Positions 748 to 32,524 of a DNA stretch of 64,000 nucleotides are shown one piece after another. The stretch lies in assembly GCF_947623445.1 (NCBI RefSeq), contig NC_135243.1, positions 8,806,501-8,870,500 of the forward strand, given 5' to 3'. The translations under genes were made by a program, and so were the position numbers. This DNA is from Clavelina lepadiformis. Its lineage: Eukaryota; Chordata; Ascidiacea; Aplousobranchia; Clavelinidae. The notes beneath the pieces were generated by a model, which was not told where the DNA came from, ran no database searches, and saw only the letters and a program-made list of their open reading frames with translations. How positions within the stretch are numbered: the stretch's first letter is position 1; each line of letters begins with the position of its first letter.

Positions 748-3700
748 CATGTGTGTGTGTCCAAATACATGATTTCAGGTTGATTTAGGTTATCGACCCA
801 AATTGCAGGATATACATGACAGAAACGTCAAGAAATGTAATCTTGAAAGAAGAACATCCGGAAACCTTGCCTATTTAATAAAATATATTAAACCATCTTG
901 TCGTAAAGACCCACCGCAGATAAATTACCATGGTGCAAAATGTAATTTTCTTCGCACTTACGTAGATTTCTCCATCAGTATATGTTGGGAATCATTTTGT
1001 TGCACTGCTTTCTGAGTACTGAAAATTCAGTGTTACAGATGAAAATATTATGAAGTTATTGAATTTGGAGCCATAACGATAAACATTAATATTTACAACC
1101 TTATAAGCAGATAATGTTTTTGTTTTTTATGATTTACGTTCAAGAAACATGTCATACCGCACACGCCCGATACCGATTCTTGACAAGCACTTTATTAAAC
1201 CATAAATGATAAGCAGAAGTTTGAAGTGTTTCATAAACGCAAAGTATACCTTACAGCAACTTCCACTGCTTTCACAAAATAAACCCAACCGATTAGTCAT
1301 ACATTTGTCCATTGCTTTGCGGCAATGTAGTATACTACAAACTACAAGTTTCAGTGCCTTTCACCAAAACAAAAACCCATAACAGCATATTAGCGTTCAC
1401 AACAATCATATGGTGGAATGGTTTAAAGCATATAATGGTACATTTCTCCTGCGGAAATACGCATATAAAGCACCTTATCATGTTCGTAATACGGACTTCT
1501 TTTACTGTTTGGGATATACAAAGTATAGGGCTCCGCAGGCATTATTGTGATTAATGTGAAAAATATATGTGGATTGTCAGGGTTAGTTGTAAAAAACTAT
1601 AGTTAAAACTAGAGCTAAACTTCTACAGTTTTACGGCATGAAGATCTGACCAACACTACAATACCTTGAGGTAGCTAGGAATATAAATACAACACGCCGC
1701 TTACATGCAGTATACTATCAAAGACATTCCTTTAGAAAAAGGCAGAAAAATAACATCGAAATACTGTCGAAAGTCTTCATGCTATCATAACTTACATCAA
1801 GCATATTGACTGACTGGCCATGACTTATTTCGACCTGACGAAACAAGCCAATGCTTGTAATTAATAACAAAAAAATCAGTGAACCTTTTAAGGTGCTATC
1901 TTTTCATTTTTGAGTCAAAAGCATTAATTTACATAACCCTTATCAAAATCTACTATAGAAGCCAATAAGGTGAGTGCAAACTGTCGTTTGCAAGTAGTTT
2001 TGAAACGAAATCAGATACCCAGGGTCTTTCCTCGTTATAAGCGGATAACGTGCCGCCTGTCAAAGTTTCTACTGCGAATAGGACAGGACGTAATACAATG
2101 CGCAGACTGCTGATGAATTCCGACCGTTTGCGACAGTGCTTGAGCAGTGGGCTAAATGGATCCTTTACCACTCAGCTTGGAAACGAAGACGATCCCATTC
2201 TTTTGAAAACGGTTTCCAAAAATCTGTGTTATATTCCGGAATAATAAGTCATAGGAATATTGGTAATTGATCGGCATCTGTATCTTGCTTTGAACATATC
2301 AGAATATCAAAATTTTAACCTGTACTTTCCCAGGAAAGGACCGTTTGCTTTTTTTAATCGGTTTTTACTGCATCTTATCAACGCTGTCCTTCACTTGTGG
2401 AGAAAATATCAATTGGAGTAACCGAGCAACCGCTAATTGTTATTTCTTCTTTATTTAGAGTTTGGATGATGTCGTTGTGTAACTTCCAGCAGTAAACACT
2501 CGATATGCTGACAGACAAGTAATACATCGAGTTTACGTCAGCTAAATTCTACAAGTTATTCCCAGTGGTGTGTAAAGTGTGTTTTGGCAGTTTGAAGCAG
2601 AAGTTAAGCATCTGATTATCTTTGCAACGCTGTAGGTCTAGCGCCAACACCACATCAGCAATCTTCCCTGCTTTGTAATGCGATATTTTGTATTGTAGTG
2701 CATTGCAGTGTTTTAATATGTGAGATAGATTAGTACAAGATTTTCGGGTAGTTAAATTTAACGTATTTTCATCATTCCGATGACGTACGTTGCAATAAAA
2801 TTTTTACTAAATTTTATAGGGAGCTATTCTTCCTTAGTTTTGGTTAATATAATCGCTAATTGATGATGCACTTCACTTCGAGTAAGCAATATTCTTTAAG
2901 AAATGGTTGAAAACAACAAATTATTATTATCGACGTTTAAAATTGTTTAGGGTTGAAAAGTTCGCACCTATTAATAATTATCAGGAAAGAAAACTTGATG
3001 AACTTGAAAAGCAATTAAAGCCAAAAACCAAAAGTTTTTCCGAAAACTTTGCATCGGACATCCTCGGCGTTTTATTTTATTCATTTTGTGTAAGTGAAGT
3101 AGAATTATTGACCGTACTTTAGTTCTAAAAGCAACGGCATGTAACTTTTATTTGAATGCTCTATAACTGCAATCAATGTAATGGATATTGATTACCAATT
3201 TAAAGTGAAGAAGGTTTCTCGGTTTGTTTGTGTGGTTTTCATAAGTTGTATGACGCAAAAAGCGGCATGAAGTGGTCAAATTTCAAAACTCAAAGATATT
3301 TTTCCAGCAAAAGTATGCTGACAGGAGATTTGGGTTCTTTAAGTCTATATAGTTCATCGATTCTGTCGCGACATTGGATGTGACATGAGTTTCCTTGCCA
3401 ATACGCTTACTGGTAAATACTAGAATCGGCAAATGAATAATTACACGAAGCAGCTGGTTAAATCTTACTCTCTTTAACCTATTGCAAACGCTCATTTTTT
3501 TGAACATTGTTGATTGTCAGCTAATGCTTATGATAAGCATAAAACATAAATTGTTTGTTGTCTATTGGTTAAATATCTCGATTCATTTCAAAAGTTTATA
3601 CACCTGATACGCTTGGATAATTACACCATTTATCACTTAAAGTAGGTAATTGATTGATTGATGTACAGCTGTTTTGATTGTGTTTATTTTTGTCCAAATT

Positions 3701-4916
3701 TTAACGCAGCGTGTTGTCGCATTTTCTAGTGCTATACAAGGTTAACTCAGAAGCGGCCTCCCGCGGTAGCATTTAGTAGCTACAAAGGCATTGGTCACAC
3801 AATAATTGTACGTTGTGCACCATGTACTGCTAAGTCGATTAAGCCTTCGCGATTGCGTTTTATTGCTTTATCTATTTTATAGAATAGAGTAAGTCATTGC
3901 GCAAAGCTTGTTGTATTTACGATAAATCGCTTTCAGTAGGGCAGACCCTGCTGAGCATAGTCTATCATTTATACTGTTTGTTGAAACTCAACATGCACTT
4001 TCCCACGAAAAGAGCTTGTGAGGTCATTAGTTAATTTCGTGGATTTTATAATATTTTGACCTTGTCTGTTCATGTCTATGCTTTTATACCCATAGCAATT
4101 TACCGCTTAAGTGGGAAAACAGCGTGTTTTGATAGATAACCTATACATTTGCAGCACAGCTTAGCTAGGTTTGGAGCCCATAGGAATGTCACCGCGAAAC
4201 AGTCGAATTCTCAGCCCGTTTTATTTGAGCAAGTAACTTTTTCTTCGTCGCATACGTCATCTATACCCAGACTAGATGTCGGGGCATGAGACGACCAGTC
4301 ATTGGGTCATGCAAAACTAAAAATAGATTGGGTCATGTTTTCATAAAATTGGGTCATGTTTTCATCTAAAACTTGCAAGCCATGCCCGTGGAGAGCTTGA
4401 TAGATAAAGCAGTGGGACATAACGCGTTTGTTTCTTTGCGCCACACTCACAAGTCGTAGAGTTTACCAGAATTGAGCGAAAACACACGACGCCGTTTGAC
4501 AGGCAACTAAACTGAAAAGTCAGTTAAAAAACATAAATTTATTTGTCGTACAATGCCATATAGGTACAAATCAGTATTCCTGACGTAAGTAGGAAACATT
4601 TTCCTGAGCTTTTTTTTGGTCGCTTGATGTCATTATGGAAACACAACTGTGACGCTTTGATTAGATTGCATCATCAATATATGCCCAGAATTATAAAATT
4701 AGATTAGATTAAGTCACGAGTCAGAGAATAGTAAATTAACTACATTCGTAAAACATTACCAAAGATATCGACAGCTATCAAAAAGCGTCAGAAACAAGAG
4801 TGTTAAAAATGGCTGTTTCTTGTAGGCTACTACGCACTGGCGTGTTGACAATAAAATTTTTTTGAGCAAATTAAATTTTGGGAAAACTGCTGAGTTTGCA
4901 TTATAAACCTATACGC
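1..4916. other. Gene-poor stretch
   Basis: No coding exon could be supported. It contains a (GT)n tract (697-760) and three short direct copies of ATTGGGTCATG at 4301, 4326 and 4348. The region 1953-2244 is open on both strands (about 60-70 codons each), with no recognised family and no convincing splice context. It may be a chance ORF or an old repeat. Confidence 0.5.
697..760. repeat. (GT)n microsatellite
   Basis: About 24 uninterrupted GT units run from 697 to 744, followed by a TATACAT interruption and five more GT units. Confidence 0.95.
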
Positions 4917-5314
4917 CAGGGATCCTCAAACTTTTTTCGTTGCGACGCCTTTGGAAAAGTTTGCTGGACTTGTGAAGCACTAGCGGTAAGAATCTAATAA
5001 AGACGCGTATTATCAAAGTTGTATTTATTGAAAAAACAAAAAAAGAAATATGATACAACAAAAAATGAATTATGAATTAAAAAGAATGTCATTTAATGTG
5101 ATGTTTGGGCTTGCTTGCTTGCTTTCGCAAAGTTTATCGAATCTTGGGAGAATTCGAATTCATGTGCCAGGAAATAGTCAATTATTGTGTGACGAAATTG
5201 TATATTGTTATGAGTGGATATAAGGTTAGCTACGAATCAGAATTGTTGTGTGACGCTCCTGGAAAATTAAAACGACGCACCAGGGCGTCGCAACGCACAG
5301 TTTGAGAACCACTG
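4917..5314. mobile_element. hAT-type MITE, 398 bp
   Basis: The element begins CAGGGATCCTCAAACT and ends AGTTTGAGAACCACTG, imperfect terminal inverted repeats of the hAT type. It is flanked by an exact 8-bp direct repeat, CTATACGC, at 4909-4916 and 5315-5322, the duplication length expected for hAT insertion. It has no transposase-like reading frame, so it is non-autonomous. Confidence 0.9.
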
Positions 5315-6756
5315 CTATACGCTATAGCAAGTTTTCCTCTTTACCAGAAAACTTATTCAAAGCATACATATAGATTGTAGATTGTTAATACAGTGTTAAA
5401 ATATAGCATCTACCGCAACGTACAGTATTAGTTAAAATATTAGCAAACGTTTATGCGTCTATATCAGTGTTGGCATTAACGTAGGCCGGTGAAAGCCACA
5501 ACAACGACAGTATAACAGTGATTTGTATTTATAGAACCAATCCTTATAAAGTTTGTTAACGGTCCTTGCGTGCTCAAGAAGATTTCAACTATGAAGACTT
5601 CAGCAACCAAAAGATAACCAGTTTTAACTTTTAACCGTTCGATTGTCACTAGGATTTGTTTGGCCGGTAATGAAAAACGTGTAGGTATAAGTTACAATAT
5701 TTTAAGCGTTATTCACCGTATGTTTAGTTTTATACGATGCCATTGTTTATGTCCAAATAAATAAATAGGTCAGGTTTACAAATCAAAATAAGCTTATTCT
5801 ATACATGTTTATAAGTATGCCTACAAGTAAAGGGGCAAAACAAGCAGCGTGAGATAAACATTTATTACATAACAAAAATTTGCAGGTAATAAAGCTAAGC
5901 AATGAAAACGTTGAAAGGATCACTTTGCAATGAATTAATTGATTATATCATACATAACACAAAGCTTCAGCAAGTGTGTGCATTTTTCATAGGTTTTTTT
6001 ACAGTTACAGGTAGGACGCAGTCTAGTTTTCGAACTGCTGCTTACGTTTTGTAGCAGCCTGCACAAAAAACACTTCTAGTGCAGCGGCATAATTTGCGTC
6101 AGTATCACTACAAATATTGATTACTAACCAAAGCTTACTTGTCCGCCTATGTTTCGCTATCAGAATGTTATGGTGGCCGTCAAGTTATAAAGCGTACATT
6201 GCAGCAATCACAATTTCGAAGTCTTTCATGTTGAAAATACTGTGGTAATATGGGGAATTTTGACTTATTCAGCCTATCTGCTTTCTTCTCTCCTTACAAT
6301 TTCTTATACTCTCACTCTCACTCTCTCTCTCATAAAACACAGTAAAAACTAATAAGTGTTCAGAAGAGTTGCGGTTGGGAGCGGCCCAATAAGCTGTTTA
6401 AAAGCAGTGAAAAGTTTACGGCTGGAAAGATAGGTACAGTTACAGTAGATCTTTAGTCAAGCCTGATTAACCGGTTATTGTCCAAATGTAGATTTTGGCA
6501 AATCTTTAACTTTTCGGTTAATCCTTTCTGATTAACCATATCAACTCAAAGAATTATGCGGTTTGTTTGACATTTGTTTACATGTTTTTAAAAGGTTATC
6601 AAGGCATTCAGATTTCTCTGTCACAGAAGGAAGTTGTTTATGGAATAAAGAAACAATTTTTATTGTAAAGTTGGTGTTTAATTGTATAGTTTCAACTAAC
6701 TGAATGCAATTGTTTTTGATTTTAAAGGCATAAGTTTCAGTTAGAAGCCACGAGCT
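5315..6756. other. Intergenic, upstream of the pentraxin gene
   Basis: No gene was recognised. A CT-rich simple repeat lies at about 6308-6331. The last few hundred bases are the presumed 5' flank of the collagen-pentraxin gene; no clear TATA box was seen. Confidence 0.5.
6722..6740 (+). promoter_or_regulatory. Splice acceptor just upstream of the pentraxin ATG
   Basis: A pyrimidine-bearing AAGTTTCAG ends at 6740, 16 bases before the start codon. It could close a 5'-UTR intron or be a spliced-leader trans-splice acceptor, as used by many ascidian genes. The sequence alone cannot tell these apart, and it could also be unused. Confidence 0.35.
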
Positions 6757-28976: not shown

Positions 28977-29154
28977 AACAATATAGTCCTGTAGAATTTG
29001 GTCTAAAAATGGGTCAACCTAGAAAAAATTCTTATAAAGACGTATTATATACTGTTGGAAAGATAATTTCATCAGCTTTTCAATGACAGGTTTTGTCATT
29101 TCTTTTACCTTGGGGAAAAAAAGTTATGACCAAAAACGTGCCAAGGGGTAAAAA
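28977..29154 (+). repeat. Left terminal inverted repeat
   Basis: Matches the reverse complement of 32357-32524. Differences include AGTCC versus TAGTAC at the tip, an extra ~10 bases after GAATTTGGTC, and scattered substitutions. Confidence 0.92.
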
Positions 29155-29372
29155 TTGAAATTAGGGAAAAAAATTTAACATAAAAATATGAACAAAAGGC
29201 TAGAAACTAATGAATTATCAACAGAAAAGCAGGATATAGATGCAAAAGGTATAAATGAAAATAAAAATAGAATTATATATCTGATTCAGGGATTAAGAGT
29301 GAGCAAGACGGGGGGGGCACCTTCGACCAACAGCTTTATGTAAAAGCATACGACATTGTATCATCAAAGAAC

Positions 29373-31676
29373 ATGAGCGTATTTGTTCGATTGGGCGGCT
29401 TTCACCAGCTTATGAGTTTTCTGGGATCAATTGGTTCCCTTATGGAAGGCAGTGGCTTGAGAAGTGCTCTTGAAACAGTATACGTTCCTGTAACTGTAGG
29501 GCACATGTTTACTGGGAACGCATTTTCCCGCGCTGTTCGAGGTCATCTGTTATGCGCAGCAGCTATTCTGTCCCTTATGTTGGAAGAATTTTGGAGTGAG
29601 TTGGCGCCCGGAGAGCAGAGTGCCTTGGAGAAATTGTATGACTCAGACAGTCCTTCTGATCATAATAATGACAACATTGGGCATAAGATGATGGCATTCT
29701 TCACGGAAAAAAAGGAGCAGCTCACACGGGAATCACGTACATCAGCTCTGTGGTTGAGCTATGTTAATTACGTTTCAGTTGTGCAGGAGTTTATTCGAGC
29801 AGAGAGAACAAGCGACTGGTTACTACACATTTCTGCGTCAAAAAGCATGCTGAACCCATTTGCTGCCACAGGCCACAACAATTATGCAAAAACATGTCGC
29901 CTGTATCTTCAAACAGTTGCAGAATTGGAAACAAGTCACCCAGATATCTACCAGCAATTTATGTACGGTAATCACACCGTCAGGCGTTCTAACAAACAAT
30001 GGGCAGGAATCTGGACTGATTTGTCTATTGAACAGATTCTCATGAAATCTCTAAAAGGAAAAGGCGGAGTCATCGGCAAGGGCATCACCGATAATGTATT
30101 AAGGGTGTGGACTAAAACCATACACAGGTGTGCAGAAGTGACAGATGCACTCAGTACAGTCACGTCATTGTCAAATTCTGATGATAAACACAAAGAGGCA
30201 TTTGCTGGAAGAATCAAACGTGATAATGATGATTTTGAAAAAGTACAAACCTGGTTTCGTTCACACAATCCATTTAAAGTTGGAGTTCAGCTTATGGCTC
30301 TAGACTCAGGGTTGGTTGATGACAACAACAGTGTGACCTGTGACCGAGCTGAGGAGATAGGGGCGTCTATCCAAGCTGAACTTGATGGTAAAACCTGTGC
30401 CAGCTATTCCTTCAAGAGGAAGAAGCAAATACGTGCTATACAGAGCCTTTATTCCCGTGTGAAAATTGACCATGATACTATCACCATTGATCCATTAATA
30501 CTCTTTTTGAGATTGGTTGTTGTCATAGAGAGAAAGCCAGAAAACGAAATTGCAGACTACTTCTTCTACGAGTTATCACCGTACCCAATGTCACTGTTCA
30601 AAGATGGAGTTCTACGAACTGCGCAAAAATCAAAACTAAAGTCACACATCTTGGACAAAGTTGAAATGACTAAAGAACCGGACTCCACAAAAATTATTGA
30701 TGGCGGTGCCTTGTTGTGGTGTTGTGACTGGAAGAAGAATGAGAAGTTCCATGAGATCTTCAAAAAGTACATCAGTTTTCTTCAGCATTTGCGCGCCAAT
30801 GTTATCGTTTTTGATGGCTACAGGGTGTCAACCAAAGATTCGACCCATCAAAAACGCTCTGGTACGACGTCTCAAACTGTTGAATTAAATAATCAAAATC
30901 CTTGCCCAACTGAAAGGAACATCTTTTTCTCAAACTATACAAACAAACAAAGATTTGTGGTGGCTTTATCGAAACAACTGGAGTTGAATGGTTTCAAAGT
31001 TCATTTGTGCCCTAGTGATGCAGATACAACAATCGTTCAAGTTGCTTTTGATTCGGTAGGTGGGACACCTGTAACTGTGTACTCCGACGATACTGACGTC
31101 CTTTGCTTGCTAGTGCATCATGCTATGCACCGCGACTATCCTGATATCTTCTTGACAAACATTACAAGAGGGAAAAACTGCCAGCAAAGACAGTGCTACA
31201 GAGTTAGAGATATTATTGCGAAGGTAGATGTTATTGTTTTGGAATACTTGTTATTCGCTCATGCATTTACGGGCTGCGATACAACTTCAGCAGTTCATAA
31301 ATTCGGCAAGATATCTGTATTTGAGAAGTTGAAATCAAGCAGTTTGCGAAATGTTGCCGATGTTTTCTACGAAGACGACGTGTCTCCAGACCAAGTTGGC
31401 AGGGCTTCGATACGGTTCTTCGAATTTTTAAACTCGTCTACGTATACTTTATCGCAAATCAGGAAACAGAAGTACGAGGAAATGGTCATGTCTAATCGTT
31501 CTCACGTTGATCCAGCTTTCCTTCCACCATCACCACGAGCTGCATATCACCACGGCCTCAGAGTATATCACCAGCTGAAAGTTTGGAAAACTTTAAGCAA
31601 CTCAGATTTGAAACCCTTGTCATGGGGTTGGCAAAAGAAAGATGACATGTTTTCTCCAGTGATGACGGATGTATAG
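29373..31676 (+). CDS. Mobile-element protein with FEN1/XPG-type nuclease core
   Basis: A single 767-codon ORF without introns. Residues 1-~430 match a repeat-encoded protein type I know only as uncharacterised, with a VRLGGFHQLMSFLGSIG opening. The C-terminal half has acidic residues in the order and spacing of flap endonucleases. These are D443 (IIDGGALL), D481 in VIVFDGY followed by a K..KR stretch, D549 and D551 in CPSDADTTIV (FEN1 has PSEAE), D572/D573/D575 in YSDDTDVLCL (FEN1 has EDMDCL), and D636 in TGCDTTS (FEN1 has LGCDY). This predicts a two-metal PIN-fold 5' nuclease, possibly the element's transposase or a helper. The frame stays open upstream to 29271 and reads FDQQLYVKAYDIVSSKN just before the ATG, which looks like family sequence. 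The true start may therefore lie in an upstream exon or be lost. The stop at 31674 probably truncates a Cys-rich C-terminus. Confidence 0.75.
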   Translation: MSVFVRLGGFHQLMSFLGSIGSLMEGSGLRSALETVYVPVTVGHMFTGNAFSRAVRGHLLCAAAILSLMLEEFWSELAPGEQSALEKLYDSDSPSDHNNDNIGHKMMAFFTEKKEQLTRESRTSALWLSYVNYVSVVQEFIRAERTSDWLLHISASKSMLNPFAATGHNNYAKTCRLYLQTVAELETSHPDIYQQFMYGNHTVRRSNKQWAGIWTDLSIEQILMKSLKGKGGVIGKGITDNVLRVWTKTIHRCAEVTDALSTVTSLSNSDDKHKEAFAGRIKRDNDDFEKVQTWFRSHNPFKVGVQLMALDSGLVDDNNSVTCDRAEEIGASIQAELDGKTCASYSFKRKKQIRAIQSLYSRVKIDHDTITIDPLILFLRLVVVIERKPENEIADYFFYELSPYPMSLFKDGVLRTAQKSKLKSHILDKVEMTKEPDSTKIIDGGALLWCCDWKKNEKFHEIFKKYISFLQHLRANVIVFDGYRVSTKDSTHQKRSGTTSQTVELNNQNPCPTERNIFFSNYTNKQRFVVALSKQLELNGFKVHLCPSDADTTIVQVAFDSVGGTPVTVYSDDTDVLCLLVHHAMHRDYPDIFLTNITRGKNCQQRQCYRVRDIIAKVDVIVLEYLLFAHAFTGCDTTSAVHKFGKISVFEKLKSSSLRNVADVFYEDDVSPDQVGRASIRFFEFLNSSTYTLSQIRKQKYEEMVMSNRSHVDPAFLPPSPRAAYHHGLRVYHQLKVWKTLSNSDLKPLSWGWQKKDDMFSPVMTDV

Positions 31677-31879
31677 CTGCTGCACCAGAAAATGTCTTGA
31701 AAATCATTCGATGTAGCTGCAAGGGATCATGTAACAGACGCTGCTCTTGTCGAAAAGCGGGCTTAACATGCACATCGTCATGCAAGGAATGTTGCGGAAT
31801 GACATGCACAAATACTACAGTCGTGTTTGATGACGAATTGGGAGAAGAAGAGAGACATTTTATGGATGCGTTTGCATGA
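31658..31879 (+). pseudogene. Cys-rich tail of the element protein, out of frame
   Basis: In a different frame from the main ORF, an uninterrupted reading continues from about 31658 to a TGA at 31879. It includes RCSCKGSCNRRCSCRKAGLT and a further CTSSCKECCGMTC cluster, a CXC/tesmin-like zinc-binding pattern. It overlaps the end of the main frame, so a one-base change near 31660-31674 probably separated the two parts. A programmed frameshift or a short intron cannot be excluded. Confidence 0.65.
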
Positions 31880-32356
31880 TTTTGATTGAAATGTGTTTAT
31901 ATTTTATTAGAACTTAAAACTGTAAATATCGTTTTTACATCTTTACAGTTGGTTTAACCCTAGCAAGACCGGGCTTTTTTGGCACTCCAGGACTGGGGGT
32001 GTACAGATTTTTGGTGTATTTTTGTAACAAAATACCCTATGAAATAGCATTTTAACTAAATACATCTTCACTACGTCTTAGATAACTTTTATGTGTTGCT
32101 TACATGACCTTGCTTATAAAAGAAAAACCTTTTATTTCGGTGAAATCTCTCGTATTATCTCCGTCTCGGTCAACTTTTACCCCCTTAAACGTGTGATAAA
32201 TACCTCTTAATAAAGTTATGTTTTATTTTTTTGCTGTCCTATTGTTAGTTTGCTTTGCTGATAGTAATATTCCAATTTATGGTGTTGTATTCTGTTACGA
32301 AGGTATCGTATTTTAGCTTATAACTTAATTGTATTATAATGTTAGGCAAAATAGTG

Positions 32357-32524
32357 TTTTACCCCTTGGCACGTTTTTGGTCATAACTTTTTTTCCCCAA
32401 GGTAAAAGAAATGACAAAACCCATCATTGAAAAGCTGATAAAATTATCTTTCCAACAGTATATATTACGTCTTTATAAGAATTTTTTCTAGGTTGACCAA
32501 AAATTCTACAGTACTAATATTGTT
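32357..32524 (-). repeat. Right terminal inverted repeat
   Basis: Inverted partner of 28977-29154. It ends 260 bases from the stop codon of the converging SSUH2-like gene. Confidence 0.92.

What the first reader, a model, noticed from the sequence alone, without database searches (positions are those of the whole stretch)
28977..32524. TIR-bounded mobile element whose only large ORF has a complete FEN1/XPG-type nuclease active site
Seen: ~170-bp inverted ends and a single 767-codon ORF. Known: FEN1-type 5' nucleases use seven acidic residues in fixed contexts (VFDG, PSEAE, EDMDC, LGCDY). The ORF has acidic residues in the same order: D443, D481 (VFDG), D549/D551 (PSDAD), D573/D575 (DDTD) and D636 (GCDTT). 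Inference: a DNA transposon may use a PIN-fold flap-type nuclease for mobilisation in place of a DDE enzyme. If the relation holds, this is a distinct mechanism of transposition.
Basis: partly seen in the sequence, partly recalled or inferred. Interest (0 to 1): 0.9.

Follow-up and report, generated by a model that had tools for sequence, protein, structure and literature searches.

The report
AcademX-type transposon with flap-nuclease domain
This is a damaged copy of a cut-and-paste DNA transposon whose protein family joins a probable standard transposase to a DNA-repair-type flap nuclease; the pairing is real and found in many relatives, but it matches a kind of transposon already described.

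Summary
The same ends occur at 14 other loci of the genome. Of 19 two-ended copies from three families with TAGT-type ends, 14 have exact 3-bp duplications, one a 4-bp duplication and four none; an empty-site paralogue confirms 3 bp for one copy. The nuclease homology is real: profile comparison with EXO1/FEN1 gives probability 97.3% (P 1.7e-11), and the acids plus a FEN-type Lys and Arg are strongly conserved.

"Nuclease in place of a DDE enzyme" is not supported. The ORF is a truncated piece of a ~1,000-1,500-aa protein whose N-terminal half (at the edge of Pfam DUF6589) carries a separate D...D...E set in 126 of 127 relatives of at least 1,150 aa. The window copy lacks the first D and has its CXC part out of frame. 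Nuclease plus 3-4-bp duplications is the published description of AcademX, in the DDD/E superfamily Academ. No Academ sequence could be compared and structure prediction was off, so fold and membership are inferred.

The parts
28981..28983 (.). target site duplication, left (ATA)
   Evidence: identical to 32517-32519
28984..29153 (+). left terminal inverted repeat, begins TAGTCCTGTAGAATTT
   Evidence: 25 genome matches to this end
29319..29372 (+). in-frame coding upstream of the called ATG, holds the second D of the putative DDE set (TFDQ; D codon 29325-29327)
   Evidence: open frame of 801 codons; D184 of P0002 is D in 127 of 127
29373..31676 (+). 767-codon ORF, truncated transposase-nuclease protein
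   Evidence: 241 homologues at E<=0.001
29388..29405 (+). RLGGFH motif after the second D, reminiscent of the C/DxxH motif of other DDE superfamilies
   Evidence: H in 127 of 127; position; the comparison is my inference
30030..30032 (+). putative catalytic E of the DDE set (TDLSIEQ)
   Evidence: E419 of P0002 is E in 127 of 127; position
30648..31475 (+). FEN1/EXO1-type nuclease region: D443, D481, K488, R495, D549, D551, D573, D575, D636 (limits approximate)
   Evidence: hhalign to EXO1/FEN1 profile; residues
31679..31877 (+). Tesmin/TSO1-like CXC (cysteine-rich) segment, out of frame with the ORF in this copy
   Evidence: some relatives are named Tesmin/TSO1-like CXC
32357..32516 (-). right terminal inverted repeat, ends ...TCTACAGTACTA
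32517..32519 (.). target site duplication, right (ATA)

Best explanation
The window holds a non-autonomous, internally deleted copy of a TIR DNA transposon, most likely of the AcademX lineage of the Academ superfamily. Longer relatives encode one ~1,000-1,500-aa protein: in some an N-terminal Cys/His-rich part, then a probable RNase-H-fold DDE transposase (DUF6589-like), a FEN1/XPG-type PIN nuclease, and often a C-terminal CXC segment. Shown: TIRs, 3-bp target duplication, copy family, nuclease homology, and co-conservation of the two acidic sets. Inferred: the DDE half cuts the 3' ends and performs strand transfer with a 3-bp stagger; the flap-type nuclease cuts the 5' (non-transferred) strand at the transposon ends, or trims 5' flaps after strand transfer, in the way TnsA complements TnsB in Tn7 (recalled). 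The window copy, without the first D and with the CXC segment out of frame, could probably move only with enzyme supplied by another copy.
For: TIR end with 25 genomic matches. In 19 two-ended copies of three families, 14 have exact 3-bp and 1 has a 4-bp duplication; 20,000 partner shuffles give mean 1.57, maximum 7 for 3-bp matches. Empty-site paralogue L045 reads GAGGGCATGGCC where filled L016 has CAT on both sides. Nuclease: hhalign Prob 97.3, P 1.7e-11 over 192 columns, against Prob 1.0 and 0.4 for residues 1-300 and 301-629 of the same alignment. In 127 relatives of >=1150 aa (of 234 listed) the seven nuclease acids are complete in 117, D-D-E in 126, both in 116; all ten without the full nuclease set still match part of it. 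The Lys and Arg are K and R in 121 of 121 rows without a gap there. DUF6589: P0117 scores 28.0 bits against a cut-off of 27; 15 of 52 members match at E<=0.1. AcademX: 3 or 4 bp TSDs and a nuclease (PMC10045372 passages).
Against: No structure prediction was possible, so neither fold was tested. Sequence and profile searches of solved structures found nothing up to E 10. Pfam nuclease hits are weak (XPG_N E 0.1, 13.5 bits against 22; XPG_I in 3 of 52, best E 0.0012). DUF6589 scores below its cut-off in the window ORF (16.2 against 27 bits) and gave nothing in the window's genome at E<=0.001. The defining Academ paper (Kojima 2020) is not held and no Academ reference sequence was compared. 4 of 19 copies lack an exact 3- or 4-bp TSD, one of them explained by its empty site. 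No experiment shows what the nuclease does.
Confidence: 0.82

Rival explanations
1. The FEN1-type nuclease is itself the recombinase: it makes the end cuts, and the N-terminal half only binds DNA.
For: The nuclease set is complete in 117 of 127 longer relatives, and the Lys and Arg are K and R in 121 of 121 ungapped rows. The DDE fold was not shown by structure.
Against: FEN-type enzymes hydrolyse and are not known to join ends (recalled). The D-D-E set is conserved in 126 of 127. A fixed 3-bp stagger is typical of DDE strand transfer (general knowledge). Academ is listed as DDD/E (PMC9587614, passage).
Confidence: 0.04
2. A DDE transposon superfamily distinct from Academ that carries a FEN-type nuclease and has not been named.
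For: No Academ sequence was available to compare; none of the listed proteins of this family bears a transposon name. DUF6589 is in no held paper.
Against: TSD length (3, rarely 4) and the nuclease are the two traits given for AcademX (PMC10045372). Academ is reported amplified in bivalves (PMC10294476, abstract and passages) and a pearl oyster protein is among the hits.
Confidence: 0.1
3. The 767-codon ORF is a domesticated host gene that happens to lie in a transposon remnant.
For: Among the places of its own family without a stop inside, it has the longest open frame (801 codons). Differences from 12 other copies are less non-synonymous than random (ratio 2.25 against 3.65).
Against: Both TIRs and the TSD are intact, the copy differs from its siblings at 224 of 18,824 positions, and it lacks the first D and has the CXC segment out of frame.
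Confidence: 0.03

Closest known systems
AcademX lineage of the Academ superfamily (Repbase; Kojima 2020, cited in PMC10045372)
   Same: TIR DNA transposon, 3 (rarely 4) bp target duplications, encodes a nuclease; Academ is counted as a DDD/E superfamily.
   Different: No difference found in the traits compared; sequence homology to named Academ elements not tested. That the AcademX nuclease is XPG-type is recalled, not read.
FEN1 / EXO1 / XPG 5' nucleases (PIN-fold flap nucleases)
   Same: Seven acids in order and a Lys and Arg after the second D; profile homology over 192 columns.
   Different: Fused to a putative transposase; third acid D rather than E; GCDTT...GK instead of GCDY...GxG; the exact +7/+14 spacing of Lys and Arg holds in the window ORF but in only 14 of 190 element proteins by a simple pattern count.
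Tn7 TnsA/TnsB (recalled)
   Same: Proposed division of labour: a DDE enzyme for 3' strands and a separate nuclease for 5' strands.
   Different: Both activities on one polypeptide here; TnsA is a restriction-enzyme fold, not PIN. Functional analogy only.
KolobokP (PMC9587614, abstract and passages)
   Same: Eukaryotic DDD/E transposon that also encodes a nuclease.
   Different: Its nuclease is of the His-Me finger homing type; it has long terminal direct repeats.

Membership tests
AcademX (Academ superfamily) | 3 or 4 bp target site duplications | tested here: met
   14 of 19 two-ended copies 3 bp, 1 of 19 4 bp, 4 of 19 none exact; one empty-site paralogue confirms 3 bp and a second recovers a 3-bp TSD for L013
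AcademX (Academ superfamily) | encodes a nuclease rather than a helicase | tested here: met
   FEN1/EXO1-type region, hhalign Prob 97.3. No helicase family among the Pfam matches printed; one search prints 25 of 30 families
AcademX (Academ superfamily) | transposase homologous to Academ DDD/E transposases | not testable with these tools
   no Academ sequence held; Kojima 2020 not held
DDD/E transposases (RNase H fold) | three conserved acidic residues D, D, D/E | tested here: met
   D23/D184/E419 of P0002: 126 of 127 relatives of >=1150 aa. Conservation only; catalysis not shown
DDD/E transposases (RNase H fold) | RNase H fold | not testable with these tools
   structure prediction switched off
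FEN/XPG nuclease superfamily | seven acidic active-site residues in order | tested here: met
   80 of 98 and 117 of 127; of the ten misses, nine are gaps and one a substitution
FEN/XPG nuclease superfamily | sequence-profile homology | tested here: met
   with two negative controls; Pfam nuclease hits weak
FEN/XPG nuclease superfamily | PIN fold | not testable with these tools
   no hit in solved structures by sequence

The most novel reading that the evidence does not exclude
The FEN1-type nuclease is not a passenger but a constitutive half of a two-centre transposase: complete in 117 of 127 longer relatives, which include a soft coral, many insects and a rust fungus, it makes the 5'-strand cut or flap removal at the transposon ends, a eukaryotic one-polypeptide counterpart of TnsA+TnsB.
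Probability: 0.35. Interest if true: 0.65.

Novelty: new member of a known kind. Interest (0 to 1): 0.32.

Why it matters
It shows that the flap-nuclease part of AcademX-like transposons keeps a complete FEN active site alongside a complete D-D-E set in one chain, so the role of a 5' nuclease in a DDE transposon becomes directly testable. It also suggests, from edge homology, that Pfam DUF6589 (function unknown) is a transposase domain. It does not show a new mechanism of transposition.

Tried and rejected
Solved-structure searches by sequence and by profile gave nothing. NCBIfam gave nothing useful. A search of the window's genome for DUF6589 gave nothing at E<=0.001, so it could not be used to look for helicase-bearing relatives. 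To find nuclease-free relatives I searched with the transposase half alone (P0092 residues 195-700); 120 of 359 hits at E<=10 were listed, out of 7,998 scored candidates. The 127 proteins of >=1150 aa from this list and that were aligned with P0002; ten lack the full nuclease set (one substitution, nine gaps). All ten still match part of a nuclease profile; several, among them beetle gene models with most of the region missing, keep only a small part. So no nuclease-free lineage was seen, but only the best hits were visible.

Papers: searches for XPG/PIN/FEN1 plus transposon terms, DUF6589 and Academ terms. Abstracts or passages only were seen of PMC10045372, PMC9587614, PMC10294476, PMC12730594, PMC3627910, PMC10799480, PMC12210899, PMC8290104, PMC9783078 and PMC9143410; of the others, search listings. 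None printed an Academ protein sequence in what I saw. That the X of AcademX stands for XPG is recalled.

Rows dropped before the TSD count: of the 15 window-family loci, L009 and L017 (one terminus incomplete) and L018-L022 (one end found); of the 17 diverged loci, L033, L038, L041 (terminus not resolved) and L032, L042, L043 (no or only a weak inverted repeat). An automatic end finder mis-set several ends; explicit ends were used. In the empty-site query the joins for L011, L012, L013 and L015 were therefore off by some bases, and 40 of 425 candidates were scored, so missing empty sites mean nothing.

Full report
What was checked. The window lies in an unnamed 209-Mb genome of 95 contigs. 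The inverted ends are real: 142 nt at 97% without gaps, extended outward by TAGTCCTGTAGAATTT with one 10-nt length difference between the two ends. The element runs from 28984 to 32516 and is flanked by ATA on both sides. The 767-codon ORF is the only ORF of 180 aa or more listed in the window. The seven acidic residues are at the stated positions.

It is a repeat family. The left end has 25 matches in 15 loci, the window included (loci read). Eight copies with both ends complete, the window copy included, are 3.5-5.5 kb long. Differences between the window ORF and 12 sibling copies total 224 in 18,824 positions, so the spread looks recent. Diverged relatives in the same genome are 31-36% identical in the longer matches. 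I fetched 17 such loci; 11 are bounded by inverted repeats whose ends I could resolve, mostly beginning TAGTCGGGTC or TAGTCCAGTC.

Target duplication. Of 19 two-ended copies in three families, 14 have an exact 3-bp duplication, one (L036) a 4-bp duplication and four neither (L013, L030, L035, L044). Pairing flanks at random gives 1.57 three-bp matches on average and never more than 7 in 20,000 shuffles. Searching 8 of the 19 joined flanks found empty paralogues for two copies. For L016 the empty site reads GAGGGCATGGCC, the filled one GAGGGCAT-element-CATGGCC, which fixes a 3-bp duplication. For L013 the empty repeat shows TAG on both sides with five extra bases between the right end and the duplicate, which explains its apparent lack of a TSD.

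The protein. A search returned 241 proteins at E<=0.001 among 8,000 scored candidates; the 120 listed reach 1,332 aa, near the length limit of that search. Named sources include a rust fungus, an ant, a firefly, a thrips and a pearl oyster, and one bacterial MAG. A second search with the N-terminal half of the rust-fungus protein listed 120 of 359; 78 of the 114 not seen before are 1,300-1,550 aa, with beetles, butterflies, aphids, an ant and a soft coral among the named sources. The window ORF is a fragment. Relative to copy L011 the window copy lacks 676 bp near 29317, and its coding DNA joins a G-run straight to the TFDQ segment, so the first conserved D is absent. Copies L010, L011, L013, L015 and L016 show Cys-containing N-terminal coding pieces in that region, and L010 a DNTDHD piece with the first D. 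The CXC segment of the window copy lies in another frame after the stop. Among relatives the outer parts vary or are incomplete: a CXC-like pattern is found in 75 of 127 (82 with a looser pattern), and an N-terminal CxxCGxxC in 12 of 91 with a long N-terminus.

The nuclease half. Profile-profile comparison of P0002 residues 630-905 (alignment A1) with a profile from 73 EXO1/FEN1-type sequences, including FEN1 and EXO1 of the same genome, gives Prob 97.3, P 1.7e-11 over 192 columns; residues 1-300 and 301-629 give Prob 1.0 and 0.4. VFDG, the DAD pair, DDTD and G(C/S)D align with VFDG, EAD, EDSD and GCD of EXO1; the first D lies outside the local alignment. In the 98-row alignment all seven acids are present in 80 rows; in 127 relatives of >=1150 aa, in 117, and the other ten still match part of the nuclease profile. 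A Lys and an Arg after the second D are K and R in 121 of 121 ungapped rows. In the EXO1 set these sit at +7 and +14 from the D in 113 of 114, as in the window, but only 14 of 190 element proteins show that exact spacing by a simple pattern count. Against: no solved structure is hit and Pfam nuclease hits are weak.

The N-terminal half. P0117 passes the Pfam DUF6589 cut-off (28.0 against 27 bits) and 15 of 52 members match at E<=0.1; the window ORF itself scores E 0.0044, below cut-off, and the family search of the genome found nothing at E<=0.001. D23, D184 and E419 are conserved in 126, 127 and 127 of 127, spaced about 165 and 242 residues (medians), and an LGGFH motif lies about 29 residues after the second D (H in 127 of 127). 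[quoted passage not shown] the resemblance is my inference. The fold is untested because structure prediction was off.

What it most likely is. PMC10045372 states that AcademX generates 3 or 4 bp duplications and AcademH 9 or 10 bp, a difference that seems related to the nuclease and helicase they encode (passages). PMC9587614 lists Academ among the superfamilies with a DDD/E transposase (passage). The element meets both testable traits of AcademX. Homology to a named Academ transposase could not be tested.

How it likely works. Inferred: the D-D-E half frees the 3' ends and joins them across a 3-bp stagger; the FEN-type half deals with the 5' strands or flaps. Its retention in most longer relatives argues that it is needed, not a passenger.

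Noticed in passing
L029:2910-6672: The family-2 element copy at 3151-6286 sits inside another inverted-repeat element with 205-bp ends beginning TACGGTAGC.
   Followed up: no
L013, right junction: Five extra bases lie between the transposon end and the target duplicate, relative to the empty repeat L046; could be imprecise end processing or a later change.
   Followed up: partly
P0117 residues 249-426: Pfam DUF6589 (function unknown) matches just above its cut-off, suggesting DUF6589 is a transposase domain.
   Followed up: partly
P0092 (Austropuccinia psidii): A rust fungus record carries a protein of this otherwise mostly animal family; horizontal transfer or contamination not examined.
   Followed up: no
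L012 and L014: Copies of the element carry about 2.1 kb and 0.9 kb of additional DNA inside them that does not align to the window copy.
   Followed up: no
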